Origin: Salipiger sp. IMCC34102
GTDB lineage: Bacteria; Pseudomonadota; Alphaproteobacteria; Rhodobacterales; Rhodobacteraceae
Length of the DNA: 64,000 bases
NCBI RefSeq assembly: GCF_004145405.1
Contig: NZ_SELQ01000003.1
Span: 124,001 to 188,000 of the forward strand
Reading direction: 5' to 3'
Shown: positions 25,866 to 52,615 of the stretch, in pieces
Layout of the letters: the number at the start of each line of letters is the position of its first letter
Position numbering within the stretch: the stretch's first letter is position 1
Made by a program: the position numbers and the translations under genes
The notes under the pieces: model-generated
What the model was told of the DNA's origin: nothing
The model's database searches: none
Seen by the model: only the letters and a program-made list of their open reading frames with translations

Positions 25866-26132
25866 GCCGCTATCCCCTAAATTGTCACGTGAAAGTCGGG
25901 GTGTAATTTCATTGCGCGCAATCGGGTTCCGAGCTTTTTCGCATGTGAATCGGTCGAAGTCCGATGTTTTGCAGGTCCGGGGCCTGCAGGGGTGGCGGTT
26001 CGCCCGCGCGAAGCGACAAACCGTCGCAACCGGGCCGAGGCGGGAGGGGGGCGGTCCCGGCGCGCGGCGAACTTCGGCTTGGCAATCGCGCCCCTCGCCC
26101 CCAATGATCGCCCCGACATGAAGGAGACGCCC
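25866..26132. promoter_or_regulatory. divergent promoter region with 12-bp palindrome
   Basis: This 267-bp gap separates the divergent aldehyde oxidoreductase and amidase genes. It contains a perfect palindrome, ATTGCGCGCAAT, at 25911-25922, and a small hairpin TGCAGG/CCTGCA at 25970-25988. A lower-GC patch at about 25870-25970 is the likely promoter zone. The regulator is unknown. Confidence 0.45.
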
Positions 26133-27563: not shown

Positions 27564-27636
27564 GGGCGCGAACACGGTATCCCTTGCAATCGCCACGATT
27601 TCTCGCTCTCCTCGACGGGCAATCGAGAGGTACGCG

Positions 27637-30414: not shown

Positions 30415-30443
30415 TCCAACCAGATACAACAAGGGAGACGACC

Positions 30444-31562: not shown

Positions 31563-32915
31563 TCAGATCGCCCGCAGGCCGGTGTCGATGGCCGCGAGGA
31601 TCGTGTCGATGTGGTGATCCTCGACGATGAGCGAGGGCGACAGGATGACATTGTTGCCCGACACGCGCAGCATGACGCCTTCGGCGTAGGCGGTCTCGTA
31701 CATCGTCTTGATCTCGGGCTTGCCGAGCGGACTTTTCTTCGACCGGTCCGAGACGAGTTCCAGCGCACACATCAGGCCGTGGCCGCCCCGGACGTCGCCG
31801 ATGACATCGTGGCGCGCCATGAGGTCCAGAAGCCCGTCGTGCAGGCGGGTGCCCTGGGTCGCGGCATTGGAGGGCACGTCGAGGCGCAGCGTTTCCGTCA
31901 GGCAGGCGATGGCGGCGGCGGCCCCCACGGGATGGCCCGAGTAGGTGTAGCCCGACCCGATCGAGGCCTTGCCGGTCTTGTCGCTCTCGAAGGTTTCGGC
32001 GATCCGGTCGGACAACATCACGGCTCCGATCGGGAAGAACCCGTTGGACAGCGCCTTGGCCGTGCACATCATGTCGGGCTTCACGCCCCAAAGGCGCGAG
32101 CCGGACCAGGCCCCCGTGCGCCCGAAGGCGGTCACGACCTCGTCGGCGATCAGCAAAATGCCGTGCTTGTCGCAGATCGCCCGCACGCCCGGCATGAAGC
32201 TTTCGTGCGGCGGGATCACGCCGCCCGCGCCCAGGATCGGCTCCATGATGAAGGCGGCGATGGTGTCGGCGCCCTGGAAGGCGATCTCGTCCTCGATCGC
32301 GGCCAGGCACAGTTGCGCCAGCCGCGCGGGGTCGCTTTCGTCGAAGGGGTTGCGGTAGGCATAGGGCGCTGGCGTGTGGAAGCAGCCGGGCATGAGCGGC
32401 TCGTAGGCCGCGCGGAAGTTGGCATTCCCGTTGACCGAGGCGCCCAGCGTATGCGTCCCGTGGTAGCCTTTCTTGAGGCTAAGGAACTTGGACCGGCCGC
32501 CTTCGCCGCGCAGGCGATGGTATTGACGGGCAAGCCGCAGGGCGACCTCGACGCTGTCGGACCCGCCCGAGGTGTAGAAGGCACGGGTCAGCCCGTCGGG
32601 GGCGAAGAACTCTGACAGCATGTGGGACAGCTCGATCGCGACATCCGTCGTCGTCCCGCGGAAGATCGTGTAGTAGGGCAGGCGGTCGAGCTGGTCCTTC
32701 ATCGCCTGTTTCACCGGCTCGCAGGAATAGCCCAAGTTCACGTTCCAAAGCCCGCCCGCGGAATCCAGCATCCGGTGGCCGTCCACGTCGGTGATGTGCA
32801 CGCCCTCGGCCTCGGCGATGATCGCGGGGGCGTTGGCCTGCATGTCGCCGGGATGGGCCATCGGGTGCCACAGGTGGCGGGCGTTCTGCGCGTGCAGGAA
32901 ATTCGAATCTTTCAT
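31563..32915 (-). CDS. class III pyridoxal-phosphate aminotransferase (omega-amine:pyruvate type)
   Basis: A PLP enzyme of 450 residues that transfers an amino group from an amine or omega-amino acid to a keto acid, usually pyruvate. The conserved WHPMAHPGD opening, the GGSDSVEVALRLAR block, GADTIAAFIMEPI, DEVVTAFGRTG and the PLP lysine in CTAKALSNGF near 285 are all present. The ATG at 32915 lies just after the iclR stop and follows AAGGG. A start at 32936 would overlap iclR. It is probably co-transcribed with iclR and lies opposite the polyamine transporter, so a polyamine or other diamine is a reasonable substrate. Confidence 0.88.
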   Translation of the reverse strand: MKDSNFLHAQNARHLWHPMAHPGDMQANAPAIIAEAEGVHITDVDGHRMLDSAGGLWNVNLGYSCEPVKQAMKDQLDRLPYYTIFRGTTTDVAIELSHMLSEFFAPDGLTRAFYTSGGSDSVEVALRLARQYHRLRGEGGRSKFLSLKKGYHGTHTLGASVNGNANFRAAYEPLMPGCFHTPAPYAYRNPFDESDPARLAQLCLAAIEDEIAFQGADTIAAFIMEPILGAGGVIPPHESFMPGVRAICDKHGILLIADEVVTAFGRTGAWSGSRLWGVKPDMMCTAKALSNGFFPIGAVMLSDRIAETFESDKTGKASIGSGYTYSGHPVGAAAAIACLTETLRLDVPSNAATQGTRLHDGLLDLMARHDVIGDVRGGHGLMCALELVSDRSKKSPLGKPEIKTMYETAYAEGVMLRVSGNNVILSPSLIVEDHHIDTILAAIDTGLRAI

Positions 32916-32916
32916 G

Positions 32917-33726
32917 TCAGGCCCTTTTGGTGTCACGGGGATCGGAAACGGCAGCCCAAAGGGCCGCGAGGTCGGGCGGCACGGTGCCGCCTAGCGAAAC
33001 GGTTGCGCGGGCGGCTCCGGCGCACAGACGCGCGCGAAACGACTCGAGCCGGTCGTCGGTGCCGCGCCCGCTGGGCATCGCGACCGACAGCGCGCCGATG
33101 ACGGCCCCGGAGGCGCCGAAGAGCGGGGCGGCCTGGCTTGCAACCTCGGTGTCGAAGCCACCCGCCGCCCGCGCGAGCCCCGCCGCGCGGATCTCGACCA
33201 GCCGGGCGCGCAGGGCCTCGGGATCGGTGATCGTGCGGTCGGTATGGGCCGCGAGCGGGCCGGCGAGCACCGCCTCGCGCAGGGCGTCGTCGGCGAAGGC
33301 CAGCACCACGAGGCCGGACGCCGTCGCGTGCAACGGCTGCATCTCGGCCTCGTCGAAGGACACTTGCGTCCCGTGGCGCTTGGGATCGGCATGGAAGATC
33401 GGCGACAGGATCCGCCCCTGCAGCATCGAGGCGTGGACCAGCTCGTCCAGGTCTTCCGAGAGTTCCGTGACAAGCGGACGAAGAACCGCGCGCGTCGGAA
33501 AGGTCGATTCGCGCACGCTGGTCAGGCGCAGGATCGCGGGTCCCAGCCGGTAGGCGCGGGTCACGGAATCCTGCTCCAGAAAGCCATTCTGTTCGAGTTC
33601 GACCAGGTGCCGATGCACGGTGGCCTTGTCGCGCCCGGTCAGGCGCACGAATTCCCCCAACCCGATCGAGGGGCGGGTTCGGCTGAAGTAGCCCAGCAAA
33701 TCCAGTGCCTTGGTGATCGTGCCCAT
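32917..33726 (-). CDS. IclR family transcriptional regulator
   Basis: A 269-residue regulator. An N-terminal winged helix is seen at about 1-60 (ALDLLGYFSRTRPSIGLGEF then TGRDKATVHRHLVELEQNG), and an effector-binding domain follows. It is divergent from the tctC operon across 131 bp that contain an operator-like element, and it precedes the class III aminotransferase in the same direction. The same element recurs before the phospho-lyase operon 10 kb away, so this protein is the best candidate regulator for both. The effector is unknown. Confidence 0.88.
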   Translation of the reverse strand: MGTITKALDLLGYFSRTRPSIGLGEFVRLTGRDKATVHRHLVELEQNGFLEQDSVTRAYRLGPAILRLTSVRESTFPTRAVLRPLVTELSEDLDELVHASMLQGRILSPIFHADPKRHGTQVSFDEAEMQPLHATASGLVVLAFADDALREAVLAGPLAAHTDRTITDPEALRARLVEIRAAGLARAAGGFDTEVASQAAPLFGASGAVIGALSVAMPSGRGTDDRLESFRARLCAGAARATVSLGGTVPPDLAALWAAVSDPRDTKRA

Positions 33727-33813
33727 GATGCGGGGGGCCCTCGTATCAAGAAATCAGCGGTTGGCTGCGGGGAATGATTGACAGACTCGGACCCGGGGTG
33801 CAAGTATATTTGC

Positions 33814-33829
33814 AACCAATGGTTCAAAT
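33814..33829 (+). promoter_or_regulatory. putative IclR operator upstream of tctC
   Basis: AACC-AAT-GGTTCAAAT contains an AACC/GGTT inverted core and lies 28 bp before the tctC start. It matches the element at 43980-43995 (minus strand) at 14 of 16 positions. A further TGAAC at 33832-33836 makes GGTTCA-N5-TGAAC. Its place in the iclR/tctC divergent gap supports an IclR site. Confidence 0.7.
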
Positions 33830-33857
33830 AATGAACTACCTGTCCAACGGAGAGACC

Positions 33858-34796
33858 ATGAAACATCTTGCCTTGCCTGTTGCCGCCCTGATGGCGTCCT
33901 TGCCTGTCGCGGCTTTGGCCGAATACCCCGAGCAGCCCGTCGAATTCGTAGTGCCCTTCCCGCCGGGCGACCTCGAGGACATCCTGACCCGCATGATCGC
34001 CGACGAGTTTCAGGCCGAGTACGGCGTCGCCGCGGCGGTGGTGAACAAGCCGGGCGGCGGCGGTGGCCCGTTCCCAGGCGCGGCGGAAGTGGCCGCGGCC
34101 CCGGCGGACGGCTACACGGTGGGATCCTTCGTGATCGACATCCCGCTGGTCGGCCCCGACATCGGCATCCCGGCCCTGTCGCCCAACCCGTTCGAGCCGA
34201 TCGGCATCTTCCTGACCTATCCCTTCGTCATCGCGGCCGCGGGCGACGCGCCGTTCTCCACCATGGAGGAATTGGCGACCTACGCGAACGAGAACGACGT
34301 CTTCCTCGGCCACTTCGGCACCTTCGCAGTGCCCACACAGGTGACCTTCGCCATGGCCGCCGAGATGGGCTTCGAATGGGGGGCGGAAGCCGCCTTCGAC
34401 GCGCTCGATTGCAACGCGCTGGCCTCCGGCGACGTGGATGTGATGAACACCACCCTGCAGCAGATCCGGCCCTGCCTCGACGATCTGACGATCCTGGCCT
34501 CGGTCGGCAACGAACGGACCGAGCTTACCCCGGATGTCCCGACCGTGGCCGAGATCACCCCCGATCTGAACATCGCCCTGTGGAACGGTTTGTTTGTCCA
34601 CGCGGATACCCCGCAGGACGTGCGCGACAAGATCGCCGTGGTGGCCGAACGGGTGATGAACTCCGACGAGGTTCAGGACCTGCGCGAACAGACCGGCGCG
34701 CTGATCTACTGGCAGGATGCCGAAGAGGCGACGCAGCAGATCGAACAGGACGCCGAAACGCTGGTACGCGTGATGGAATACGTCCCCGCCGAGTAA
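33858..34796 (+). CDS. tripartite tricarboxylate transporter substrate-binding protein, TctC family
   Basis: A periplasmic binding protein of 312 residues for a TTT-type secondary transporter. The Sec signal ends near residue 20 (Ala-Leu-Ala). The mature start YPEQPVEFVVPFPPGD and the following NKPGGGGGPFPG stretch match the TctC/Bug family. The Met at 33858 begins the signal peptide and follows GGAGAG. The earlier in-frame start at 33774 would cover the operator. It is the first gene of tctC-tctB-tctA-aldehyde dehydrogenase-Tm-1-HAD. The ligand is unlikely to be citrate by default, since Bug proteins bind many acids. Confidence 0.88.
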   Translation: MKHLALPVAALMASLPVAALAEYPEQPVEFVVPFPPGDLEDILTRMIADEFQAEYGVAAAVVNKPGGGGGPFPGAAEVAAAPADGYTVGSFVIDIPLVGPDIGIPALSPNPFEPIGIFLTYPFVIAAAGDAPFSTMEELATYANENDVFLGHFGTFAVPTQVTFAMAAEMGFEWGAEAAFDALDCNALASGDVDVMNTTLQQIRPCLDDLTILASVGNERTELTPDVPTVAEITPDLNIALWNGLFVHADTPQDVRDKIAVVAERVMNSDEVQDLREQTGALIYWQDAEEATQQIEQDAETLVRVMEYVPAE

Positions 34797-34804
34797 GTCT
34801 CAGT

Positions 34805-34830
34805 CCCCCCGGCCGACCGCGGCCGGGGGG
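34805..34830 (+). promoter_or_regulatory. intra-operon hairpin between tctC and tctB
   Basis: CCCCCCGGCC at 34805-34814 and GGCCGGGGGG at 34821-34830 form a perfect 10-bp stem with a 6-nt loop. There is no T run, so it is more likely an mRNA-stabilising or attenuating hairpin that raises the binding-protein level relative to the membrane genes. Confidence 0.6.
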
Positions 34831-34854
34831 CAAGACCAAGGATGCCCTGGTGCC

Positions 34855-35391
34855 ATGACCCAGACCCTTCAGGATCTCTTCAAACGCTACCGCAGGCCGG
34901 GCGATCTTCTGTTCGCGATGCTGTTCTTCGCGTTCAGCCTGTTCCTGCTGGCCAGCCTGCCGTTCCAGACGACCTGGGTCGCGCGCACGGGGCTGGTGGC
35001 GCAGCCCGCGTTCTGGCCCACCGTTTCGATCGCGGTGATGGTGCTCTTCGGCGGGCTGCACCTTTTGGGCGGCCTTTTGTCGGCCCGCATCCCGGGGCGC
35101 CTGGCCGAGGTCATGTACTGGGTGAAATCGGCGGAATACGCGCTATGGTTCCTGGCCTACGTGCTGATCCTGCCTGTGGTGGGGTATCTGCCGACCACCG
35201 TGGCGCTCTCGGTGATCCTGACCTTGCGGCTGGGCTATCGCGGGCCGCGCTGGATCGTGATCGCGGCGGTCTTCGGTGCGGCGGTCGTGCTGGTCTTCAA
35301 GGGGCTTCTGGGGGTGCGCATCCCCGGCGGCACGCTCTACCGCCTGATCGAGAACGACGCCCTGCGCAGCTTCGCGCTGTCCTATCTTTAA
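34855..35391 (+). CDS. tripartite tricarboxylate transporter small membrane subunit, TctB family
   Basis: The small membrane subunit, 178 residues with four hydrophobic segments, at about 20-37, 53-72, 92-115 and 123-148. Sequence conservation in TctB is low, so the call relies on length, topology and its place between tctC and tctA. It follows a strong intra-operon hairpin. Confidence 0.85.
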   Translation: MTQTLQDLFKRYRRPGDLLFAMLFFAFSLFLLASLPFQTTWVARTGLVAQPAFWPTVSIAVMVLFGGLHLLGGLLSARIPGRLAEVMYWVKSAEYALWFLAYVLILPVVGYLPTTVALSVILTLRLGYRGPRWIVIAAVFGAAVVLVFKGLLGVRIPGGTLYRLIENDALRSFALSYL

Positions 35392-35403
35392 GGAATAACC
35401 CTC

Positions 35404-36927
35404 GTGGACGTTTTCCTGTCCGGCCTGGAGATGCTCGCGCGTTTCGACATCGCCCTGGCCTTGCTCATAGGCTCCATCGGAGGCGTCATCATCGGTGCGA
35501 TCCCCGGCGTGGGACCGCCCGTGGCGATCGCCATCCTGCTGCCCGCGACCTTTGCGCTGCCGCCTCTGGTGGGGCTGACGCTGCTTCTGGGGATCTACGG
35601 ATCCTCGATGTTCGGCGGCGCACTTCCGGCCATCCTGATCAACACGCCCGGCACGGCGGTCAATGCGCTGACCACCTACGATGGTCACCCGATGGCCCGC
35701 GACGGAAACCCGCTGCGCGCGCTGGGGCTTGCCTACGGCGCCTCCTTCGTCTCGGCGGTGCTGTCGATCCTGGCCCTCATCCTGCTGTCGCCGCTCCTGG
35801 CCAGGATCGCGCCGATGTTCGGCAGCCGGGAGATCTTTCTCGCGGCCCTTCTGGGCATCGTCCTGGTGGTGCTGGCGCACCGGGGGCAGACCTTTCCCGC
35901 GGGCATGCTCGCGGCACTCGGCATCTTCCTGGCCACCGTGGGGCTGGAGCCCGTGAAGTATACCCAGCGCTTCACTTTCGGGACCGACACGCTGGCCTCC
36001 GGCTTCGATCTGATCGTGGTGGTCATGGGACTCTTCGCGCTCAGCCAGGCCTTCACGCTGATGGCCGACCCCGAGGCCGCACCGGACACCAAGCCGATCA
36101 AGGGCAGCCTCTTTCGCGCGATGCTGGAGGTGTTCCGCTTCAAGCGCATCGCCGCCGCCGGGTCCGGGTTCGGCGTGCTGATGGGGATGATCCCGGGCGT
36201 GGGCGAGTTCACGGCCCAGTTCCTGTCCTACACTTATGCGCAGAAAAGCTCGAAGACGCCCGAGCAGTTCGGCAAGGGCAGCCCCGAGGGGCTGGTGGCC
36301 TCCGAATCCGCCAACAACGCCGTGCCCGCGGCGGCGATGATCCCGCTGCTGGCACTTGGCATCCCGGGCGAGGCGCTGACGGCGATGATGCTTTCGGTCT
36401 TCTACGTGCACAACGTCGTGCCGGGGCCGGGACTGTTTCAGAACCAGCTGGACCTTGTCTACGCGCTCTACGCGGCCTTGCTGATCCTGAACGTGATCGT
36501 TGTGATCTTCCTGATTTTCGCTTCGAACTGGCTCTTGCAGATCATCCGCGTGCCGACCCGGTTCCTGGGCCTCGCGATCCTGATCCTGTCCTTCGTCGGC
36601 GTCTACACGTTGCGCAACTCGGTCAGCGACTGCGTCATCGCGGCGGGCTTCGGGCTCTTCGGGGTGATCCTCAAGCGCCAGAACCTGCCGGTGGTGCCGA
36701 TCATCCTCGGGATGGTTCTGGGCGGGATCATGGAGACGAAGCTGCGCTCCGCCATGGGGCGGGTGCGCAGCCCTCTGGATTTCGTCGACCGTCCCATCGC
36801 GGGCTTCCTTGCCGCGGTCATCGTGCTTTTGATCGTGGGCCACATCTGGGGCGTGATCCGAGAGCGCCGCCGCGGCCTGCCCGAGGACGCGCACGACCAC
36901 GACATGCACCACACCCAGCAAAGGTAG
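35404..36927 (+). CDS. tripartite tricarboxylate transporter large membrane subunit, TctA family
   Basis: The large permease subunit, 507 residues with about 11 or 12 membrane helices. TctA signatures are present: GAIPGVGPPVAIAILLP near 32-48, YGSSMFGGALPAILINTPGT near 66-85, and a second repeat MGMIPGVGEFTAQFLSYTYAQ near 260-280. The start is GTG at 35404, 12 nt after tctB. It ends 4 nt before the aldehyde dehydrogenase gene. Confidence 0.92.
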   Translation: MDVFLSGLEMLARFDIALALLIGSIGGVIIGAIPGVGPPVAIAILLPATFALPPLVGLTLLLGIYGSSMFGGALPAILINTPGTAVNALTTYDGHPMARDGNPLRALGLAYGASFVSAVLSILALILLSPLLARIAPMFGSREIFLAALLGIVLVVLAHRGQTFPAGMLAALGIFLATVGLEPVKYTQRFTFGTDTLASGFDLIVVVMGLFALSQAFTLMADPEAAPDTKPIKGSLFRAMLEVFRFKRIAAAGSGFGVLMGMIPGVGEFTAQFLSYTYAQKSSKTPEQFGKGSPEGLVASESANNAVPAAAMIPLLALGIPGEALTAMMLSVFYVHNVVPGPGLFQNQLDLVYALYAALLILNVIVVIFLIFASNWLLQIIRVPTRFLGLAILILSFVGVYTLRNSVSDCVIAAGFGLFGVILKRQNLPVVPIILGMVLGGIMETKLRSAMGRVRSPLDFVDRPIAGFLAAVIVLLIVGHIWGVIRERRRGLPEDAHDHDMHHTQQR

Positions 36928-36931
36928 ACCG

Positions 36932-38416
36932 ATGCTCGACCACACGACACTCGACCGGCTGCGCGCGACCCCCGTCGCGGAAGGCCGTCACCTGATCGAC
37001 GGCCAATGGGTCGGCGCCTCCGACGGCGCACGGATGGAGGTGATCTCGCCGCTCGACGGTCAGGTCCTGACCACCATCGCCGCCGGCACGGACGCTGATG
37101 CGCAGGCCGCCTGTGCCGCCGCGCGACGCGCCTTCGACGACGGACGCTGGTCGGGTCTGGCCCCCGCCGCGCGCAAGGCGGTCCTGCTGCGCTGGGCCGC
37201 GCTGATCGAGGCGGAGGCCGAGGCGCTTGCCGTGCTGGGCGTACGCGACAACGGGACCGAGATCGGGATGGCGCTGAAGGCCGAACCACTCTCCGCCGCC
37301 GCGACGATCCGCTATTACGCGGAAGCCGCCGACAAGCATTACGGCCAGATCGCACCGACCGCCCCCGGCACGCTGGGACTTGTCCACGCGGAGCCCGTGG
37401 GCGTGGTCGCCGCGATCGTGCCCTGGAACTTTCCGCTGATGATCGGCGCCTGGAAACTGGGTCCGGCGCTGGCCGCAGGCTGCACCGTCGTCGTCAAGCC
37501 ACCCGAGACCGCGTCGCTGACGCTGTTGCGGATCGCCGAACTGGCGCAGACGGCGGGCCTGCCGGACGGGGTGCTGAACGTGGTCACCGGCGCGGGATCG
37601 GTGGTGGGCGAGGCGCTGTCGCTGTCGCAAAAGGTCGACGTGGTCACTTTCACCGGCTCCGGTCCCGTGGGGCGGCGGCTGATGCAGAATGCGGGCGCCT
37701 CGAACCTCAAGCGGGTCTATCTGGAACTGGGGGGCAAGTCGCCCAACATCGTCTTTGCCGATGCGCCGGACCTGGACGAGGCGGCCAAGGTCTCCGCGGC
37801 GGGAATCTTCCGCAACTCCGGCCAGGTCTGCGTCGCGGGTAGCCGGATCCTGGTGGAACGCGGCATCCACGACGCCTTCGTCGAAAAACTGGCGGCTCAG
37901 GCCCGTGCCACGGTCGTGGGCGATCCGCTCGATCCCGCGACACAGGCCGGTGCGGTCAACAGCGCGCGGCAGCTGCAGCAGAACCTCACCTTCGTGGAGG
38001 AGGCCCGCGAACAGGGCCGCACCGTGATCGGCGGAAACCGCATCCGCGAGGAAACCGGCGGCTACTTCATGGAGCCCACCATCGTCACCGGCGTCGACCC
38101 CGCCGACCGCTTGGCACAGGAAGAGGTCTTCGGCCCCGTCGTGGCCGTGATCCCCTTCGACACCGAGGACGAGGCCATCGCGATCGCCAACGGCACCGAC
38201 TACGGCTTGGCGGCTGCGGTCTGGACCTCTGATCTGTCCCGCGCGCACCGCATGGTGGCGCGGATCCGCGCGGGCGTGGTTCATGTGAACACCTACGGCG
38301 GGGCGGATCTGACCGTGCCGCTGGGGGGTGTCGGCCAATCCGGCAACGGGCACGACAAGTCTCTGCACGCGCTCGACAAGTTCCTCAACCTCAAGACCGC
38401 GTGGATCAAGCTATGA
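36932..38416 (+). CDS. NAD(P)-dependent aldehyde dehydrogenase
   Basis: A 494-residue aldehyde dehydrogenase that oxidises an aldehyde to the acid. It has the PWNFPLM cofactor stretch near 168-174, the general base Glu in LELGGKSPN near 266-268, and the catalytic Cys in NSGQVCVAGSR near 301. It sits in the TTT operon, 4 nt after tctA, and overlaps the Tm-1-like gene by ATGA. It may oxidise the aldehyde produced by the nearby phospho-lyase-like enzyme, since both operons share an operator-like element. Confidence 0.9.
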   Translation: MLDHTTLDRLRATPVAEGRHLIDGQWVGASDGARMEVISPLDGQVLTTIAAGTDADAQAACAAARRAFDDGRWSGLAPAARKAVLLRWAALIEAEAEALAVLGVRDNGTEIGMALKAEPLSAAATIRYYAEAADKHYGQIAPTAPGTLGLVHAEPVGVVAAIVPWNFPLMIGAWKLGPALAAGCTVVVKPPETASLTLLRIAELAQTAGLPDGVLNVVTGAGSVVGEALSLSQKVDVVTFTGSGPVGRRLMQNAGASNLKRVYLELGGKSPNIVFADAPDLDEAAKVSAAGIFRNSGQVCVAGSRILVERGIHDAFVEKLAAQARATVVGDPLDPATQAGAVNSARQLQQNLTFVEEAREQGRTVIGGNRIREETGGYFMEPTIVTGVDPADRLAQEEVFGPVVAVIPFDTEDEAIAIANGTDYGLAAAVWTSDLSRAHRMVARIRAGVVHVNTYGGADLTVPLGGVGQSGNGHDKSLHALDKFLNLKTAWIKL

Positions 38417-39651
38417 GCGGGCCCGAGCGCACCATCCTCCTCGTCGGCACCTTCGACACCAAGAACGACGAGCTCGACTACGTGGCCGGTATCATCCGCG
38501 GGCAGGGCGGGGCGGTCCTGACGATGGACGTGAGCGTGCTGGGTGATCCGCAGGCGCCCACGGACGTCTCAAAGCACGACGTGGCGCGGGCCGCGGACAA
38601 CGACATCGACGCGGTCATCGCCGCGGGTGACGAGAATGCGGCGATGCAGATCATGGCGCGCGGCGCGGCGCAGCTGACCGCGCAGTTGCACCAGGATGCC
38701 CGGATCGACGGGGTGCTCGTCATGGGCGGCACCATGGGGACGGACCTGGCGCTCGACGTCTGTTCGGCCCTGCCGCTGGGAGTGCCGAAATACATCGTCT
38801 CGACCGTGTCGTTCTCGTCGATGATCCCGGCGGAGCGTCTGCCGGCGGATATCCAGATGATCCTCTGGGCGGGGGGGCTTTACGGGTTGAACTCGGTCTG
38901 CCGCGCCTCGCTGAGCCAGGCGGCGGGGGCCGTGCTGGGCGCGGCCCGCGCGGTCGAACCGCCGGACCGTACGCGCCCGTTGATCGGTATGACCTCCTTC
39001 GGGAAGACCGCCCTGCGCTACATGGTGCCCCTGAAGCCCGCGCTGGAAGACCGCGGTTTCGACGTGGCCGTCTTCCACGCCACCGGCATGGGCGGGCGCG
39101 CCTTCGAAAGCCTGGCCGCACAGGGCGCCTTCGCCTGCGTCTTCGATTTCGCCACGCAGGAGGTCGGCAACCACCTGTTCGGTTCCAGCGTCACGGCGGG
39201 CGAATGCCGCCTGACCGCTGCGGGACGTGCGGGCACGCCGCAGTTGGTGGCGCCGGGGTGCTACGACCTCGTCGACCTGATCGGCTGGCAACCGGTGCCG
39301 GAGGCGCTTTCGGACCTGCCGTCCCATGCGCACAACCGGTTGCTGACCTCGGTCGTGCTGGACGCGGATCGGCGCAGGGCCGTGGCACGTGCCTTGTGCG
39401 ATAAACTGTCCGAGGCCGACGGGCCGACCATGATGCTTCTGCCGACGGGCGGCTGCGGCGAATGGGACCGCCCCGGCAACGATCTGCACGACGCGGCGGG
39501 CCTTTCGGTCTTCCTGGACGAGATGCGCGCCTGCCTCCCCGAGGGCAAGGTCCGAGAGGTCGAAGCGCATATCAACGACCAGGCCTTCGCCGATGCGGCA
39601 CTGGCGGTCTTCGACGCCTGGCTGGCGGACGGCACGGTGGCCCGGCCATGA
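38413..39651 (+). CDS. Tm-1-like ATP-binding domain protein (UPF0261)
   Basis: A 412-residue protein of the Tm-1/UPF0261 family. The N-terminal part has the nucleotide-binding opening ILLVGTFDTKNDELDY near 6-21. GVLVMGGTMGTDLAL near 99-113 and the C-terminal LLPTGGCGEWDRPG near 336-349 are family stretches. The reaction is not established. Homologues often pair with TIM-barrel partners, but none is seen here. The ATG at 38413 overlaps the dehydrogenase stop. An in-frame GTG at 38401 is inside that gene. It overlaps the HAD gene by ATGA. Confidence 0.82.
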   Translation: MSGPERTILLVGTFDTKNDELDYVAGIIRGQGGAVLTMDVSVLGDPQAPTDVSKHDVARAADNDIDAVIAAGDENAAMQIMARGAAQLTAQLHQDARIDGVLVMGGTMGTDLALDVCSALPLGVPKYIVSTVSFSSMIPAERLPADIQMILWAGGLYGLNSVCRASLSQAAGAVLGAARAVEPPDRTRPLIGMTSFGKTALRYMVPLKPALEDRGFDVAVFHATGMGGRAFESLAAQGAFACVFDFATQEVGNHLFGSSVTAGECRLTAAGRAGTPQLVAPGCYDLVDLIGWQPVPEALSDLPSHAHNRLLTSVVLDADRRRAVARALCDKLSEADGPTMMLLPTGGCGEWDRPGNDLHDAAGLSVFLDEMRACLPEGKVREVEAHINDQAFADAALAVFDAWLADGTVARP

Positions 39652-40292
39652 GCAAGGCACTCGTCCTCGACTTCGGTGGCGTGATTTCCCGCACGCTGTT
39701 CGAGACCCACGATCTGACCGAGGCGGCGCTGGACCTCGCACCGGGCACGCTGACCTGGCGCGGTCCGTTCGATCCCGTAAGCGATCCCCTGTGGCAACGC
39801 ATGCAGGCGCAGGAGATCACCGAGCGGGACTACTGGCAGCATCGCATGGCCGAGACGGGTGCCCTGGTCGGTGAGACCTGGACCGAGTTTCCCCAGTTCG
39901 TGGGCCGTGTCAGGGGCGCGGACCCCGCCGCCGTCATCCGGCCCGAGGCGCTCGATGCCATCGCTGCCGCGAAGGCGGGCGGGTGCAGGCTGGCGGTCCT
40001 GTCGAACGAGCTCGACCTTTTCTACGGGATCGACTTTCGCGACAAGTTGCCGTTTCTGAAGGATTTCGACGCGGTGATCGACGCGACCTACACGAAGATC
40101 CTCAAGCCCGACCCCCGCGCCTACGGGTTCGTGACGGAGGCGTTGAACCTCGCGGCCGCGGATTGCGTCTTCGTCGACGACCAGTTGAAGAACGTGAAGG
40201 GCGCGCAGGCGGTGGGCATGGACACCGTCGCCTTCGACGTGACGGCCCCCGCCGAAAGCTACGCCGCGGCCTTGTCGAAACTGGGTCTCTAG
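39648..40292 (+). CDS. HAD superfamily hydrolase
   Basis: A 214-residue HAD-type phosphatase or related hydrolase. Motif I is DFGGVI near 8-13, motif II is LSNE near 118-121, the Lys of motif III is in TKILKPDPRAYG near 148-159, and motif IV is VFVDDQLKN near 175-183, with the acidic pair. The substrate is unknown; a phosphorylated intermediate of the same regulon is possible. It is the last gene of the tctC operon and converges with the P450 gene. Confidence 0.85.
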   Translation: MSKALVLDFGGVISRTLFETHDLTEAALDLAPGTLTWRGPFDPVSDPLWQRMQAQEITERDYWQHRMAETGALVGETWTEFPQFVGRVRGADPAAVIRPEALDAIAAAKAGGCRLAVLSNELDLFYGIDFRDKLPFLKDFDAVIDATYTKILKPDPRAYGFVTEALNLAAADCVFVDDQLKNVKGAQAVGMDTVAFDVTAPAESYAAALSKLGL

Positions 40293-40321
40293 GCCCGTCC
40301 GGTGTCAGACGTTGCGGCGTC

Positions 40322-40348
40322 GCGCTTCACCCTTTGGGGGTGAAGCGC
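40322..40348. terminator. perfect hairpin overlapping the P450 3' end
   Basis: GCGCTTCACCC at 40322-40332 and GGGTGAAGCGC at 40338-40348 form an 11-bp perfect stem with a 5-nt loop. It spans the P450 stop codon and lies in the gap between convergent operons. There is no T run, so it is at best a bidirectional hairpin end or RNA stabiliser. Confidence 0.45.
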
Positions 40349-41517
40349 ACGTTCAGCTTGCGCGGCGCGCGGAACTCCCAACCGTTGAAGACCACCGCGT
40401 CGTCGCCGTCGAGCCGGATGTCGGTGAGCGCGTCGAGCAGGACCCTCAGGGCGATCTCGATCTGGGCCGCGGCGAACCAGCGACCCGCGCAGAAATGATG
40501 GCCGAACCCGAAGGTGGCAGCCCCCGCCGCCGCGCGGTTGATGTCGAACCGGTCGGGATCGTCGAAACGACTTTCGTCGCGGTTGGCCGAGGCCAGCACC
40601 GCTGTGACCGGCGCGCCTTTCGGCAGCGTGACGCCCCCCAGCTCGGTATCCTCGAGCGGGATGCGGAACTGTGTCGCGATGGGCGCGACCCAACGGATGC
40701 CTTCGGTGACGGCGCGCGGGATCAGCGCCTCTGGATCGGCCATGACCTGCGCCATCTGGTCGGGGTTCTGCAGCAACCCCACCAGCGTGGTGCCCGCCCC
40801 GTGCCCCGGTTCCTGCATGCCGCCCAGCAGCGTGACCTTCAGGGTGGGAAGGATGAAGTCGTCCGGCCGGGTTTCACCCTCCGGCATGTCGTGATGCAGC
40901 ATCTGCGACAACGCAGTCGTGTCGGGCTGCGTCCGCAGCCGCGCCAGCAGGGGGGCCACCACGGCCTCGATCTCGGTGGCGACCGCGTCGTTCAGCGCGG
41001 TCTTGGCGGGATCGTTCTCGAAGTTGGTGGCGCCGGCGGACATGCCGTGGAACCAGCGGCGCAGCGTCTCCGCGTCGATATCCTCGATCCCCAGCGACCG
41101 GGCGAGCGCCAGGGTCGAGATCGGCTCGAAGTATTCCGACATCAACTCCGCCTGGCCCTTCGCCTGGATCTTCGACAGGTAGTCCCGGGCGATGGGGGTC
41201 ACGAGCGCGTCGATGAAGTCGGCGACCTTCTTGGGCCGGTAATGCGGCTCGAGCCCACCGCGCAACGCCTTGTGGGTCGGGCCTTCGGCGCTGAGGATGT
41301 TCGGCCGGCCGAAGGCGCGGTCCACCGGGGAGGCGTCGGCGTCGGCGGTGAAGAGATCGGGTGACTTCGTCACCGTCTGCACGTCGTCCCAGCGCGTCAC
41401 GAACCAGACGTTGGCGGCCGGAACGTAGGCCACGGGAAACTCCTCGCGCAGGCGGGCGTAGATCGGGAACGGATCGCGGTCGAGCTCTTCGATGGTGATC
41501 GTCTCGGGGAACGTCAT
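40327..41517 (-). CDS. cytochrome P450
   Basis: A soluble P450 monooxygenase of 396 residues. The heme-ligating Cys343 is in FGFGHHFCAGRW, and the ExxR pair is Glu272-Arg275. In the I helix the usual acid-Thr pair is changed: PGHGAGTT at 237-244 has Gly242 where Asp or Glu is normal, with Thr243 kept. AGGAGA before the Met at 41517 sets the start. It lies 64 nt after the kinase gene in the same direction, so it probably belongs to the phospho-lyase-kinase operon. No ferredoxin or reductase partner is encoded in the window. Hydroxylation or demethylation of the pathway substrate is an inference. Confidence 0.9.
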   Translation of the reverse strand: MTFPETITIEELDRDPFPIYARLREEFPVAYVPAANVWFVTRWDDVQTVTKSPDLFTADADASPVDRAFGRPNILSAEGPTHKALRGGLEPHYRPKKVADFIDALVTPIARDYLSKIQAKGQAELMSEYFEPISTLALARSLGIEDIDAETLRRWFHGMSAGATNFENDPAKTALNDAVATEIEAVVAPLLARLRTQPDTTALSQMLHHDMPEGETRPDDFILPTLKVTLLGGMQEPGHGAGTTLVGLLQNPDQMAQVMADPEALIPRAVTEGIRWVAPIATQFRIPLEDTELGGVTLPKGAPVTAVLASANRDESRFDDPDRFDINRAAAGAATFGFGHHFCAGRWFAAAQIEIALRVLLDALTDIRLDGDDAVVFNGWEFRAPRKLNVRFTPKG

Positions 41518-41581
41518 GGCGTGATCTCTCCTGTCGTTTCGGTCCGGCGTCCGGTTGGGTCCGCCGCGCGATGGCATCTGT

Positions 41582-42526
41582 CTATGGGCGTCGGTGGTCG
41601 ATCCAGTGCTGGAGGAGGGGCCGCGCCTGGTCGATGAACCGACGGTTGCGCGCGCCCGTGGGATCCTCGGCCCTGCGGGTGATGTTCCAGCCGACGTAGG
41701 TCGCGGCCCTCAGGGCGAGGAACAGGTCGAGGCGGGACAGGTCGACGCCGCGCAGATCCGTGTAGCTTTCCAGCAGGGCGGCCTTCAGGGCAGGGTAGTC
41801 GGGTGCGGTCATGTGCTTGAACAGCGCGGTGGCGATGTCGAACAGCCGGTAACCGTAGCCGCCGTCGTCGAAGTCGATCAGCGCAAGCCCCTCGCGTCCG
41901 ACCAGCACGTTCGCCGCGACCAGATCGGCGTGGATCAACCCCGTATCGGCCTCCGCTCCGTCTTCGCCCAGCGCGTCATGCGCCTGCGTGCGGAACGCCT
42001 CGAACAGGGCGCGGTCCTCGGTCGTCAGGCCGGGATTGCGCCAGAACCTGTCCCAAAGCGGCATCTCGCCCAGCAGGCCGTCACGGTCCCACCTACAGCG
42101 CCGAAACCCCGGCGGCGGGGTCCAGGCGTCAGAGGCAGCGTGAAGGCGCGCCATCTCGGCACCCAGCGCGGCGAAGAGCTGCCGGCGGGTATCGGGGGAG
42201 GCGGCATCGAGCGCCTCGGCGAGTGTCTCGCCCTCCAGCCAGGTGAGCACATCGACCTGGACCCCGTCCACCACGTGCAGGAGAGCCCCGTCGGAGGCAG
42301 GCACCGGGGCGGGGACACCGATCCCGGCTGCGGCCACGGCGGCCATCCAGTCCAGTTCCGAGGCGAGTTCGGCGTCGCTGCGATAGCCCGTGCGATGCAA
42401 CCGCAGTGCCAGCGACGTGCCACCCCGCGTAACCCGGTAGACCGCGTTTTCGCGGGCGGCGATCAGTCGGGCCTCCGCCCCCGAAAGGCCCCAGAGCGAA
42501 AGCGCACGGTCGAGCGTGCCGCTCAT
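41582..42526 (-). CDS. APH-family small-molecule kinase (hydroxylysine/choline kinase-like)
   Basis: A 314-residue kinase of the aminoglycoside phosphotransferase/choline kinase fold. The catalytic Brenner motif is IHADLVAANVL near 196-206, and the metal-binding Asp is in LIDFDDGG near 214-221. It overlaps the upstream class III PLP gene by ATGA. In animals, an APH-fold kinase makes 5-phosphohydroxylysine and a class III PLP enzyme then removes phosphate and ammonia. The same pairing here suggests it phosphorylates a hydroxylated amine or amino acid. The substrate could equally be ethanolamine-like or homoserine-like. Confidence 0.82.
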   Translation of the reverse strand: MSGTLDRALSLWGLSGAEARLIAARENAVYRVTRGGTSLALRLHRTGYRSDAELASELDWMAAVAAAGIGVPAPVPASDGALLHVVDGVQVDVLTWLEGETLAEALDAASPDTRRQLFAALGAEMARLHAASDAWTPPPGFRRCRWDRDGLLGEMPLWDRFWRNPGLTTEDRALFEAFRTQAHDALGEDGAEADTGLIHADLVAANVLVGREGLALIDFDDGGYGYRLFDIATALFKHMTAPDYPALKAALLESYTDLRGVDLSRLDLFLALRAATYVGWNITRRAEDPTGARNRRFIDQARPLLQHWIDHRRP

Positions 42527-43809
42527 CCGGTGACCTCTTTCAGAACCTCGTCGAGCGTATCCATGAGCAGGTCGACATGCGCGATCGAGAAGGTCATCGG
42601 CGGCCGGATCTTCAGCGTGTTCTTGTGCCGGCCCAGCTTGGAGTGGATGATTCCACGGTGGCGCATGGCGTTGATGACGCGGTCGGTGAAACCGGTCGCG
42701 GGTGTCTTGTTGCCGTGATCCTCCACCATCTCGGCGCCGAAGATCAGGCCGGAGCCGCGGACGTTGCCGATCACGTCGTGTTTCTTCGCAAGCGCATCCA
42801 GACGGGCACGGGCGTGATCGCCAGAGGCGCGCGCGTTGGCCAGCAGGTCGCGATCCGCGATCTCCTCCAGGACCGCCATGGCCGCAGCACAGGAAACGGG
42901 GTTGCCGCCGAAGGTGTTGAAGTAGCGATAGCCCTTGCGGAACGTGGCCAGCAGGTCGCGGTTCGCCACGACGCCGCCCACGGGATGCCCGTTTGCCATA
43001 GGCTTGCCCAAGGTCAGGATGTCTGGCACGACGCCCATCTTCTCGTGCGCCCACATGTGCGTACCGGTGCGTCCGAAGCCCGATTGCACCTCGTCGCAGA
43101 TCAGCAGGCCGCCGGCCTTGCGGACCACCTCGGCCACGGGTTTCAGCCAGCCATCGGCGAGGTCCGGGAAGCCTTCGTTCACGAAGTAGGGGCAGATGAC
43201 GAGGGCGGCGAAGCCGGTGCCGTCCTCCTCGAGTTCCACGATGCGTTCCGCCACCTGGGCTGCGAAGATCGTGCCGTCGAGGTCGGGGGTGCGGTAGCTG
43301 TCGGGCGCGTCCACGAAGCGGAAATACTGCTCCAGCCCGAAGCCCACCGTGGGCACGTTCGACTTGCTGAGTTGGCTGACCAGCGCCGTGTTGCCGTGAT
43401 AGGTCGCGTCGGTCGCGATGATCCCGCGGTTCCCGGTCGCGGCTTCCGCCATGCGCAAGGCGATATCGTTCGCCTCGGACCCGGTGCAGGTCAGGATCGC
43501 CGTGTCGAGCGAGGCATCCATGGTCGCCGTCAGCGCCTCGATATAATCCAGGATCCCGTCGTGCAGATAACGCGTATGCGTGTTCAGCGTCCCGGCCTGG
43601 CGGCAGATCGCCTCCACCACGCGCGGGTTGCAATGACCGACATGGGGGACGTTGTTGTAACAGTCGAGGTACTTGCGGCCCTCGGCGTCCCACAGCCAGA
43701 CGTCTTCGCCTTTCACGAAATGCACCGGGTCGTCGTAGAAGGTCGAGACGTTCGGCCCCATCAACCGGGATCGGTCGGCGATCAGTTGTTCGAGACTGCG
43801 GGCCGTCAT
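42523..43809 (-). CDS. class III PLP enzyme, phospho-lyase-like (ETNPPL/PHYKPL branch)
   Basis: A 428-residue class III aminotransferase-fold enzyme. The PLP lysine is in LTLGKPMANG near 269, and ICDEVQSGFGRTG precedes it. The stretch NNVPHVGHCNPRVVEAI with LNTHTRYLHD near 52-83 resembles the animal ethanolamine-phosphate and phosphohydroxylysine phospho-lyases more than ordinary transaminases, from memory of those sequences. Such enzymes release ammonia and phosphate to give an aldehyde. Its tight coupling to a kinase gene supports this. It could still be a transaminase of the alanine-glyoxylate type. It heads the operon phospho-lyase, kinase, P450. Confidence 0.82.
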   Translation of the reverse strand: MTARSLEQLIADRSRLMGPNVSTFYDDPVHFVKGEDVWLWDAEGRKYLDCYNNVPHVGHCNPRVVEAICRQAGTLNTHTRYLHDGILDYIEALTATMDASLDTAILTCTGSEANDIALRMAEAATGNRGIIATDATYHGNTALVSQLSKSNVPTVGFGLEQYFRFVDAPDSYRTPDLDGTIFAAQVAERIVELEEDGTGFAALVICPYFVNEGFPDLADGWLKPVAEVVRKAGGLLICDEVQSGFGRTGTHMWAHEKMGVVPDILTLGKPMANGHPVGGVVANRDLLATFRKGYRYFNTFGGNPVSCAAAMAVLEEIADRDLLANARASGDHARARLDALAKKHDVIGNVRGSGLIFGAEMVEDHGNKTPATGFTDRVINAMRHRGIIHSKLGRHKNTLKIRPPMTFSIAHVDLLMDTLDEVLKEVTG

Positions 43810-43979
43810 GCGAAACTCCTCTCAGGTCACTCCGGCACGCGGTGGCTGCAGCACCGCACCGGCGCCCGTCGGATCAGACCCGCAGGAGCGGACCGACGGA
43901 CGTCAGACCGGCGCGCCGGGGTGGCCTCGCCGATCGGACAGCCGGACCGTGGCAGGTTCCATTTAACATGGCAACAATA

Positions 43980-44008
43980 ATTTGAACCGATGGTTTGTTA
44001 TTTGAACC
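43980..44008 (-). promoter_or_regulatory. putative IclR operator of the phospho-lyase operon
   Basis: On the minus strand AACC-ATC-GGTTCAAAT (43995 to 43980) matches the tctC element at 14 of 16 positions and points the same way relative to its gene. GGTTCAAAT is repeated directly at 44008-44000, exactly 20 bp away. It lies about 170 bp before the phospho-lyase-like start, in a low-GC patch. Confidence 0.65.
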
Positions 44009-44046: not shown

Positions 44047-44523
44047 TCATGGCTTCTTGGCATCCTCGTCATCGAGGTCGCTCAGGATCGCATCCAGTTC
44101 ATCCAGCAGCGCCATGATTCTCTCGGACCCGATACGGGCCTCGATGCGATCGCGGATCGCCGCACTTTCCGGAGCGATCGCGCGAATCAGGGCCGTGCCG
44201 TCCGCAGTCAGGCGCAGACTCGCGCGTCGTGCATCGCCGGGGGTGCGGCTGATCTCGATCAGGCCGCGGTCCTGCATGGTCTTGGTCATCCGCGACAGGG
44301 ACGGGGCAAGGATGTTCGCGGCTTCCGCCAATGCGCCCATGTCGAGCCCGGGCGTCTCGTCCAGAACGCGGATCACGCGCCACTGTTGCTCGGTCAGCCC
44401 GTGCTGGTGCAGCATAGGGCGGAAATGCTCCATGACCTTTTCGCGGACACGGAGCAGGGCGATGGGGAGAGACCGCCGCGTGCTGTCCAATGCGTTGTCC
44501 CGGGGTGGGAAGTAATCAATCAT
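44047..44523 (-). CDS. hpaR: MarR family regulator of homoprotocatechuate degradation, HpaR
   Basis: A 158-residue MarR-family repressor. It has LPIALLRVREKVMEHFRPML near 19-38 and HGLTEQQWRVIRVL near 40-53, typical of HpaR, and a winged helix with MGALAEAANILAPSLSRMTKTM near 61-82. AGGA before the ATG at 44523 sets the start. The longer frame reaches into hpaF. It is divergent from the hpa operon, the usual HpaR arrangement, and probably represses it until a pathway acid is present. Confidence 0.9.
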   Translation of the reverse strand: MIDYFPPRDNALDSTRRSLPIALLRVREKVMEHFRPMLHQHGLTEQQWRVIRVLDETPGLDMGALAEAANILAPSLSRMTKTMQDRGLIEISRTPGDARRASLRLTADGTALIRAIAPESAAIRDRIEARIGSERIMALLDELDAILSDLDDEDAKKP

Positions 44524-44621: not shown

Positions 44622-45011
44622 ATGCCGCATCTGTCCATCGAATATTCGCAAGGGCTCGAGGCGCGCGCCGACGTGGCCGACCTGTGCCGGTCGCTGCATG
44701 CCGTGATGGTCGCCTCGCCGGTCTTCCCCACGGCGGGCCTCCGGGTGCGGGCCTACAGGGCCGACCATGCCATCGTCGCGGATGCGCAAGCCGACAATGA
44801 CTTTCTTGCCATGACGCTTTCGGTGGGGGCCGGCCGGGACACCCAGGTCCTGCGCACCGCGGGCGACGCCCTGTTCGCCGCGGCGCAGGCGGCACTCGCC
44901 GAACCGCTCTCGACCCCACATTTCGCCCTCTCGCTCGAGATCCGCGTCATCGACCCGGAGTTGAGCTGGAAGGACACGCCAATCCACGCCCGCCTGTCGG
45001 GGACCACATGA
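44622..45011 (+). CDS. hpaF: 5-carboxymethyl-2-hydroxymuconate delta-isomerase, HpaF
   Basis: A 129-residue isomerase of the tautomerase/CHMI fold, which acts on 5-carboxymethyl-2-hydroxymuconate after the dehydrogenase step. Pro1 of the mature protein (after Met removal) is present in the start MPHLSIEYSQGLE and is the expected catalytic base. GGAGG lies before the ATG. It is the first gene of the hpa operon and ends at an ATGA junction with the hpaE frame. Confidence 0.92.
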   Translation: MPHLSIEYSQGLEARADVADLCRSLHAVMVASPVFPTAGLRVRAYRADHAIVADAQADNDFLAMTLSVGAGRDTQVLRTAGDALFAAAQAALAEPLSTPHFALSLEIRVIDPELSWKDTPIHARLSGTT

Positions 45012-45019
45012 GGACCACC

Positions 45020-46530
<1,511 letters not shown>

Positions 46531-46531
<1 letters not shown>

Positions 46532-52576: not shown

Positions 52577-52615
52577 CGTCTTCTCCTCCAGTTGGTTTGC
52601 GGGTGGTCTTGGGTC

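What the first reader, a model, noticed from the sequence alone, without database searches (positions are those of the whole stretch)
31563..44008. Candidate catabolic system: P450, APH-type kinase, phospho-lyase-like enzyme and aldehyde dehydrogenase in one IclR regulon with a TTT importer
Seen: a phospho-lyase-like class III PLP gene (42523-43809) is fused by ATGA to an APH-fold kinase (41582-42526), and a P450 (40327-41517) follows 64 nt later. Convergent to it is tctC-tctB-tctA-aldehyde dehydrogenase-Tm-1-HAD (33858-40292), divergent from iclR and a class III aminotransferase. A 16-bp element with 14 identities lies before both arms. Known: in animals an APH-type kinase and an ETNPPL/PHYKPL phospho-lyase convert hydroxylysine or ethanolamine phosphate to aldehyde, phosphate and ammonia. 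Inferred: substrate import, P450 hydroxylation or demethylation that exposes a hydroxyl near an amine, phosphorylation, elimination, then aldehyde oxidation. I know of no described pathway with this set.
Basis: partly seen in the sequence, partly recalled or inferred. Interest (0 to 1): 0.85.

Follow-up and report, generated by a model that had tools for sequence, protein, structure and literature searches.

The report
Bacterial pathway degrading hydroxylated aromatic amines
This bacterial gene cluster most likely breaks down hydroxylated aromatic amines related to octopamine and noradrenaline: it phosphorylates the hydroxyl group, eliminates it together with the amine, and feeds the product into a known ring-cleavage pathway encoded next door; the chemistry is inferred from genes and has not been assayed.

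Summary
In detail: gene order, ATGA overlap, 64-nt gap and 14/16 operator match. The proposed substrates (hydroxylysine, ethanolamines) are not. The finding ends about 40 bases short of hpaR and a homoprotocatechuate (hpa) ring-cleavage operon with a DOPA-decarboxylase-like gene. The phospho-lyase is tied to hpa: 21 of 22 family genomes (own included) with a copy at least 65% identical carry HpaE, against 80 of the other 273; 44 of 60 plasmid records have hpaE or hpaD within 20 kb. In Rhizobium and Ruegeria the genes of both arms are arranged in other operons beside the same kind of IclR gene, so one regulon is likely. The P450 resembles the guaiacol O-demethylase GcoA; in 8 of 8 Rhizobium plasmid records with a close copy it lies about 8.6 kb from the phospho-lyase. 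Best reading: beta-hydroxyphenethylamines (octopamine, noradrenaline, O-methylated forms) are phosphorylated and eliminated to arylacetaldehyde, oxidised, O-demethylated or hydroxylated, then ring-cleaved. Substrate and P450 role are inferred; no assay was possible.

The parts
42523..43809 (-). PLP-dependent phospho-lyase-like enzyme (class III fold)
   Evidence: PDB 5g4i 380 bits and 6tor (ethanolamine-phosphate phospho-lyase) 325 bits; next best GABA transaminase 178; groups with these two in a small tree
41582..42526 (-). APH-fold small-molecule kinase, proposed aromatic amino-alcohol kinase
   Evidence: Pfam APH 111.5 bits; PDB 6ef6 119 bits; HADLVAANVLV and IDFDD stretches aligned
40327..41517 (-). 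cytochrome P450 of the GcoA (aromatic O-demethylase) kind
   Evidence: PDB 8u09, 9ia1 and GcoA entries at 298-326 bits; pocket mapping
33858..34796 (+). TctC solute-binding protein of TTT importer
   Evidence: orthologues at 69-70% identity annotated as TTT substrate-binding protein; no NCBIfam match
34855..35391 (+). TctB
   Evidence: Pfam TctB 40.8 bits, cut-off 29.1
35404..36927 (+). TctA permease
   Evidence: orthologues at 69-71% identity annotated as TTT permease; no NCBIfam match
36932..38416 (+). aldehyde dehydrogenase, proposed arylacetaldehyde dehydrogenase
   Evidence: NCBIfam PuuC 564, BADH 457, StyD 451 bits, all below their cut-offs; conserved in the set
38401..39651 (+). Tm-1-like / UPF0261 protein, role unknown, recurrent member of the set
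   Evidence: NCBIfam PRK02399 624 bits, over cut-off 556
39648..40292 (+). HAD-IA hydrolase, next to the Tm-1-like gene in Rhizobiaceae
32917..33726 (-). IclR-type regulator
   Evidence: best NCBIfam PcaR/PcaU/PobR 112 bits, below cut-off 285
31563..32936 (-). class III omega-aminotransferase, proposed for aromatic amines without beta-OH
   Evidence: NCBIfam PRK07481 700 bits, over cut-off 575; PDB best matches include omega-transaminase 5lh9
33810..33828 (.). proposed IclR operator at iclR-tctC promoter
   Evidence: palindrome with 2 mismatches; 0 of 300 shuffles as good
43981..44006 (.). proposed IclR operator(s) upstream of the phospho-lyase gene
   Evidence: 14/16 match to the first site; palindrome with 4 mismatches, 3 of 1000 shuffles as good
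44047..44523 (-). HpaR regulator
   Evidence: TIGR02337 134.8 bits, cut-off 121.2
44622..45011 (+). HpaF-like isomerase
   Evidence: PRK15031 76.6 bits, below cut-off 215
45008..46531 (+). HpaE
   Evidence: TIGR02299 768 bits, cut-off 638
46531..47514 (+). HpaD 3,4-dihydroxyphenylacetate 2,3-dioxygenase
   Evidence: TIGR02295 412 bits, cut-off 321
47541..48938 (+). aromatic-L-amino-acid / DOPA decarboxylase-like
   Evidence: PDB 7xin DOPA decarboxylase 374 bits; NCBIfam matches all far below cut-off
48935..49789 (+). HpaG-like
   Evidence: TIGR02303 149.8 bits, below cut-off 276
49786..50586 (+). HpaH-like hydratase, by position and sequence cluster
   Evidence: clusters with L044, L047, L049, L050 and L052 genes next to hpaG
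50596..51372 (+). HpaI-like aldolase
   Evidence: TIGR02311 355 bits, just below cut-off 369

Best explanation
A catabolic regulon for beta-hydroxylated aromatic amines. Inferred route: an amine of the octopamine / noradrenaline type is imported; the kinase phosphorylates its beta-hydroxyl with ATP; the PLP enzyme eliminates phosphate and releases ammonia, giving an arylacetaldehyde (a beta-deoxygenation without a redox step); the aldehyde dehydrogenase makes the arylacetate; ring hydroxylation or, for 3-methoxy compounds, P450 O-demethylation gives homoprotocatechuate; the adjacent hpa operon cleaves the ring. The class III aminotransferase and the decarboxylase would bring in amines and amino acids lacking the beta-hydroxyl (tyramine, dopamine, tyrosine/DOPA). 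IclR controls both arms; HpaR controls the ring-cleavage part. Shown by sequence: enzyme families, pairing, hpa linkage, similar operator sites. Inferred: substrate, step order, P450 role, regulation.
For: Phospho-lyase class. Linkage to hpa: of 295 family genomes (own included), 22 have a PLP copy of at least 65% identity and 21 of these have HpaE over cut-off, against 80 of the other 273 (Fisher 5.9e-10, relatedness not corrected); 11 of those 23 copies lie less than 20 kb from HpaE. Of the 60 best plasmid records 44 have hpaE or hpaD within 20 kb, a lower bound since the two hpa lists were cut at 60 rows. Different transporters serve the same core: TTT here, APC permease in L063-L066 and L073-L074. 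In 6 of 31 loci with a called kinase gene, a FAD monooxygenase is the next gene after the kinase, in 5 on the same strand; the one scanned (L041) is phenol-hydroxylase / 3-hydroxybenzoate-hydroxylase-like. Rhizobium loci with hpaBC-type genes beside the set. The decarboxylase matches DOPA decarboxylases. P450 of GcoA kind with the equivalents of Phe75, Val241, Gly245 and Phe395 kept (residue roles from passages of PMC6021390). Both arms are linked elsewhere: Ruegeria conchae has tctCBA-ALDH-Tm-1-PLP-kinase in line; R. etli has iclR-Tm-1-HAD-aminotransferase-PLP-kinase divergent from APC-ALDH-P450.
Against: No assay, expression or growth data. PLP relatives of 59-65% and 54-59% identity are mostly not near hpa (3 of 28 and 1 of 37 copies within 20 kb), so the fold alone does not set the substrate. 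Of 8 annotated plasmid neighbourhoods read, four (L061, L064, L067, L068) show no hpa ring-cleavage genes in the stretch; Ruegeria conchae and R. pomeroyi carry HpaE hundreds of kb away on the same plasmid. G047 has a 78% copy but no HpaE over cut-off. TTT importers are usually linked to carboxylates (recalled), which fits an amine poorly. The window genome has no HpaB, so octopamine itself would need another ring hydroxylase. The roles of UPF0261 and HAD are unexplained. No GcoB-like partner was found, and close P450 relatives in G178 and in four genomes of another family are not near a close PLP copy.
Confidence: 0.6

Rival explanations
1. Substrate is an aliphatic amino alcohol (ethanolamine, 1-amino-2-propanol, hydroxylysine or methylated forms); hpa is a chance neighbour.
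For: The best characterised relatives act on such compounds: 6tor is ethanolamine-phosphate phospho-lyase; 6ef6 is, as recalled, the mycobacterial aminopropanol kinase (one search names it only aminoglycoside phosphotransferase). Several copies of the pair have no hpa genes near by.
Against: hpa linkage in two orders, far above background; aromatic hydroxylases and a DOPA-decarboxylase-like gene in linked loci.
Confidence: 0.15
2. Substrate is a beta-hydroxylated aromatic amino acid (beta-hydroxytyrosine or dihydroxyphenylserine): the decarboxylase first makes octopamine or noradrenaline, or the phospho-lyase acts directly to give an arylpyruvate.
For: Aromatic-amino-acid-decarboxylase-like gene in the hpa operon; TTT importers fit a carboxylate better (recalled).
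Against: No decarboxylase gene was matched in the hpa part of linked loci L047 (a 7.2-kb contig), L049 and L050.
Confidence: 0.12
3. The P450 is an N-demethylase (synephrine, adrenaline) that exposes the primary amine the PLP enzyme needs, rather than a ring O-demethylase.
For: PLP enzymes need a primary amine (general knowledge); the P450 is an optional gene of the set.
Against: Among its nearest solved P450s are the GcoA aromatic O-demethylase entries, and the equivalents of Val241 and Gly245, which hold the two substrate oxygens in GcoA, are kept; relatives sit beside an APC permease and ring-cleavage-like genes without a close PLP/kinase pair in another family.
Confidence: 0.15
4. The PLP enzyme is a true transaminase and the kinase acts on another intermediate.
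For: Class III fold; relatives annotated 'aspartate aminotransferase family protein' in many plasmid records.
Against: Large score gap to transaminases; 26 of 26 phospho-lyase-like sequences form one group and share residues such as N52, N53, H275 and K400, absent from the 5 transaminases in the set.
Confidence: 0.07

Closest known systems
Ethanolamine-phosphate phospho-lyase (ETNPPL, PDB 6tor) and the bacterial phospholyase PDB 5g4i
   Same: Class III PLP fold, shared residues, expected elimination of phosphate and ammonia to an aldehyde (reaction of ETNPPL from passages of PMC8233209)
   Different: Operon-paired with a kinase and linked to aromatic ring cleavage; substrate unknown
1-amino-2-propanol utilisation locus of Rhodococcus/Mycobacterium microcompartments
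   Same: A phosphotransferase, an aminotransferase-like enzyme and an aldehyde dehydrogenase in one locus (passages of PMC6620236, which proposes a different order of steps); nearest solved kinase 6ef6
   Different: Aromatic pathway instead; only 119 bits between the kinases; no shell protein among the annotated features (no dedicated shell search made)
Homoprotocatechuate (hpa) meta-cleavage pathway
   Same: HpaR, HpaE and HpaD over cut-off; F, G, H and I-like genes in order
   Different: HpaB not found in this genome; extra decarboxylase and adjoining phospho-lyase regulon
GcoA guaiacol O-demethylase
   Same: Nearest solved kind; QEPGH I-helix stretch, equivalents of Phe75, Val241, Gly245 and Phe395
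   Different: Ala and Gln at the Phe169 and Thr296 positions; no GcoB-like reductase found

Membership tests
Phospho-lyase branch of class III PLP enzymes | Closer to characterised phospho-lyases than to transaminases | tested here: met
   380 and 325 bits against 178 for the best transaminase; one group of 26 of 26 in a tree with 5 transaminases of only two kinds, local support 0.91. PHYKPL and AGXT2 were not in the set.
Phospho-lyase branch of class III PLP enzymes | PLP lysine present | tested here: met
   LGKPMANG aligned to the GKPMGNG of 5g4i and 6tor and to the matching lysine of GABA transaminase
Phospho-lyase branch of class III PLP enzymes | Releases phosphate and ammonia from a phosphorylated amino alcohol | not testable with these tools
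   needs an assay
APH-type small-molecule kinase | APH domain with catalytic H-x-D and D-F-D stretches | tested here: met
   (motif roles recalled)
GcoAB two-component O-demethylase | P450 of the GcoA kind | tested here: met
   about 300 bits to GcoA entries, next kind at 186
GcoAB two-component O-demethylase | Dedicated GcoB reductase (N-terminal 2Fe-2S, then FAD and NAD domains) | tested here: not met
   One FAD_binding_6 match in the genome, with C-terminal 2Fe-2S and about 108 kb from the P450 on the contig; GcoB layout from passages of PMC6021390. Only this one domain was searched.
GcoAB two-component O-demethylase | O-demethylates a 2-methoxyphenol | not testable with these tools
   needs an assay
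hpa homoprotocatechuate pathway | HpaD and HpaE over curated cut-offs | tested here: met
hpa homoprotocatechuate pathway | HpaB 4-hydroxyphenylacetate hydroxylase in the genome | tested here: not met
   0 of 1 genome; also not found in 22 of 23 genomes with PLP copies (20 of the 21 other genomes at 65% or more, plus 3 at 59-62%) and in 17 of 23 HpaE genomes without a PLP match at E 1e-100 (23 of 49 such genomes tried)
One IclR regulon | Shared operator before both arms | tested here: inconclusive
   Sites at 33810 and 43981; in relatives 7 of 23 divergent promoters have a comparably significant site

The most novel reading that the evidence does not exclude
A widespread alphaproteobacterial route that consumes catecholamine-type and octopamine-type signalling amines: the beta-hydroxyl is removed by phosphorylation and PLP-dependent elimination instead of oxidation, and a GcoA-like P450 strips the 3-methoxy group of O-methylated catecholamines or of homovanillate, so that all join homoprotocatechuate.
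Probability: 0.4. Interest if true: 0.75.

Novelty: new variant of a known kind. Interest (0 to 1): 0.62.

Why it matters
If true, it gives genes and a mechanism for how bacteria remove the beta-hydroxyl of octopamine or noradrenaline on the way to homoprotocatechuate, links phospho-lyase chemistry to aromatic catabolism, and re-annotates genes now called 'aspartate aminotransferase family' or 'homoserine kinase' in Rhodobacteraceae and Rhizobiaceae records. It is directly testable with two purified enzymes.

Tried and rejected
Rejected: hydroxylysine / ethanolamine as main substrate (hpa linkage). Rejected: the P450 as strictly required, since 35 of 35 PLP-kinase loci lack a close copy. Considered: loss of HpaB as specific to this set; it is not found in 22 of 23 relatives with the PLP gene but also not in 17 of 23 HpaE genomes without it, so it is largely a trait of the family. 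Considered: other P450s near the set in L048, L051 and L059 (22-23% identity); they are of another kind (L048 matches CYP125-type structures; L048 and L059 have a glutamine-synthetase-like gene beside them, L051 a GATase-like gene) and were not counted as copies. Literature searches on octopamine, noradrenaline or synephrine catabolism showed no paper on such a pathway in their listings; one search listed 20 of 78 papers, one search found none, and the library is open-access only, so this is weak. PMC10816480 passages report that wild-type HpaBC of Acinetobacter did not hydroxylate octopamine. A recalled 1988 report of octopamine to 4-hydroxyphenylacetate in Pseudomonas aeruginosa could not be read. 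Operator: of 23 divergent promoters of relatives tested, 7 had p of 0.007 or less (L030, L043, L048, L051, L057, L058, L059), one of L033 0.013, the other 15 above 0.05. Structure prediction was not used.

The gene caller returned nothing for L028, L037 and L048; these are missing from that call's counts. L047-L055 were partly chosen because they lie near hpa, so neighbourhood counts that include them are not an unbiased sample; the unbiased test is. On recounting, the number of loci with three core genes changed from 21 to 22 of 35.

Full report
1. Observation. Every gene named in the finding is at its stated place and strand, the ATGA overlap and 64-nt gap are real, and the 14/16 element lies at 33814-33829(+) and 43980-43995(-). 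The element belongs to a palindrome, TTTGAACCNNNGGTTCAAA; the window holds three sites with four or fewer mismatches and 5 shuffles held none. The 14/16 match by itself was reached by 1 of 60 shuffles, so it is suggestive only.

2. What lies beyond the coordinates. From 44047 the window carries hpaR and an hpa ring-cleavage operon: HpaR, HpaE and HpaD pass their curated cut-offs, HpaI falls just short, HpaF and HpaG are well below theirs. An extra gene in it matches DOPA and aromatic amino-acid decarboxylases (374 bits).

3. Enzyme classes. The PLP enzyme scores 380 bits to the bacterial phospholyase 5g4i and 325 to ethanolamine-phosphate phospho-lyase 6tor, then drops to 178 for GABA transaminase. 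In a 31-sequence tree 26 of 26 phospho-lyase-like sequences group apart from 5 transaminases (one GABA transaminase, four aminotransferases from these loci), so the outgroup is narrow. The other class III gene (31563-32936) matches omega-transaminases. The kinase has an APH domain and the expected motifs; its best solved relative is 6ef6, which I recall as the mycobacterial aminopropanol kinase. The P450 is nearest to 8u09, 9ia1 and GcoA.

4. Conservation. Of 35 fetched loci with both PLP and kinase genes, 22 also match at least three of: aminotransferase, IclR, TctC/TctA, ALDH, UPF0261; in one of these (L027) the ALDH match is only 31% identical. Among the 16 fetched by the kinase alone (L023-L038, several on short contigs) it is 7. 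In Ruegeria conchae tctCBA-ALDH-Tm-1-PLP-kinase run in one line beside iclR; in Rhizobium brockwellii and R. etli, iclR-Tm-1-HAD-aminotransferase-PLP-kinase run together, and an APC permease and ALDH are divergent. So the genes of the window's two arms occur in other operon arrangements beside an IclR gene, and the transporter is replaceable.

5. Link to ring cleavage. Over 295 genomes of the family (294 genera, own included), PLP copies of at least 65% identity occur in 22 genomes, 21 with HpaE over cut-off; of the other 273, 80 have it (Fisher 5.9e-10; relatedness not corrected). Copies within 20 kb of HpaE, by identity: 74% and above 9 of 15, 65-74% 2 of 8, 59-65% 3 of 28, 54-59% 1 of 37, below 54% 0 of 31. 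In named plasmids, 44 of the 60 best PLP records have hpaE or hpaD within 20 kb; 16 do not, or their hpa genes are not in the cut lists. Of 8 plasmid neighbourhoods read with annotation, hpa ring-cleavage genes are in 4 (L062, L063, L065, L066) and not in the other 4. Among 20 genomes or records behind loci found by the kinase, 19 have HpaE over cut-off.

6. Ring-modifying enzymes vary. In 6 of 31 loci with a called kinase gene a FAD monooxygenase of one sequence cluster is the next gene after the kinase, in 5 on the same strand; the L041 member matches phenol 2-monooxygenase PRK08294 over cut-off and 3-hydroxybenzoate hydroxylase 2dkh at 658 bits. Rhizobium loci have hpaBC-type genes nearby. 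The window genome has no HpaB match and has the P450. This is what a phenolic substrate would need.

7. The P450. Of 27 plasmid records matched at E 1e-60, the 8 at 58% identity or more are all Rhizobium and carry it 8.6-8.7 kb from the PLP gene; in R. etli and BT03 it follows the APC permease and ALDH genes, divergent from iclR. These are close relatives, so this is about one lineage. Against: G178 has a 58% copy on another contig than its PLP genes. In the class search 5 of 385 genomes matched, own included; the other four, of one genus of another family, have a 57-59% copy and PLP relatives of at most 48% identity, in G472 one of 45% in a 1051-residue frame about 13 kb from the P450. In those four the P450 adjoins an APC permease gene 54-55% identical to the Rhizobium one, and HpaE/HpaG-like genes lie near; in L075, the one scanned, HpaR/E/D/G-like genes are all below cut-off and an aromatic-decarboxylase-like gene follows. 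Mapping on GcoA: equivalents of Phe75, Val241, Gly245 and Phe395 are kept; Phe169 is Ala and Thr296 is Gln in the window protein. In the 9 close copies (window included) Ala is in 9, Gln in 8 (L045 has Met), and Phe75 is Trp in the three Rhizobium copies; three distant P450s (34-37%) also have the Ala. In GcoA, Thr296 moves to bond the 4-aldehyde of vanillin (PMC6021390 passages) and F169A improves syringol turnover (PMC6628648 passages). This fits a larger, 4-substituted methoxyphenol such as homovanillate or normetanephrine, as inference.

8. Chemistry. A phospho-lyase acting on R-CH(OPO3)-CH2-NH2 gives R-CH2-CHO, phosphate and ammonia (general chemistry; reported for R=H with ETNPPL, PMC8233209 passages). 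With R = hydroxyphenyl the product is hydroxyphenylacetaldehyde, one oxidation from the entry compounds of the hpa pathway. That is why octopamine and noradrenaline type amines are the best fit. The aminotransferase can make the same aldehydes from tyramine or dopamine, and the decarboxylase can supply those amines; these are inferences.

9. Novelty and limits. Each enzyme kind is known; their joining into a beta-deoxygenating aromatic amine pathway was not seen in the listings of the searches made (open-access library only). UPF0261 and HAD, recurrent members, have no assigned step. No function was assayed.

Noticed in passing
L048 1301-4628, L059 16900-19900, L051 4814-6869: P450s of another kind (22-23% identical to the window P450) lie in some clusters; L048 and L059 have a glutamine-synthetase / gamma-glutamylputrescine-synthetase-like gene beside them and L051 a GATase-like gene, perhaps gamma-glutamylation of amines.
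   Followed up: partly
L075-L078: In four genomes of another family the GcoA-like P450 has an APC permease gene beside it and, as scanned in L075, a ring-cleavage-like operon with an aromatic-decarboxylase-like gene.
   Followed up: partly
L023, L024, L025, L029, L038, L041, L051: A metallo-hydrolase gene of one sequence cluster sits between the aminotransferase and the phospho-lyase genes in seven loci; the L041 member is RNase Z-like, below cut-offs.
   Followed up: no
window 25992-31460 (+): Amidase gene followed by a PotD/PotF-like ABC importer convergent to the aminotransferase gene; could be a second amine importer.
   Followed up: no
window 51455-62351 (-): A separate set: amidase, DUF3237, branched-chain-type ABC importer, GST and a flavin monooxygenase (PRK08132, over cut-off).
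   Followed up: no
G472, G345, G645, G569: Several more distant phospho-lyase relatives lie in open frames of about 700-1050 residues, as expected for fused kinase-phospho-lyases like PRK06148; not examined further.
   Followed up: no
G000:C10:5300-6442: A second, distant P450 (34%) in the window's genome; 18 of the 21 P450-positive genomes of the family search have only such 33-38% matches, and two of those sampled group with it.
   Followed up: no
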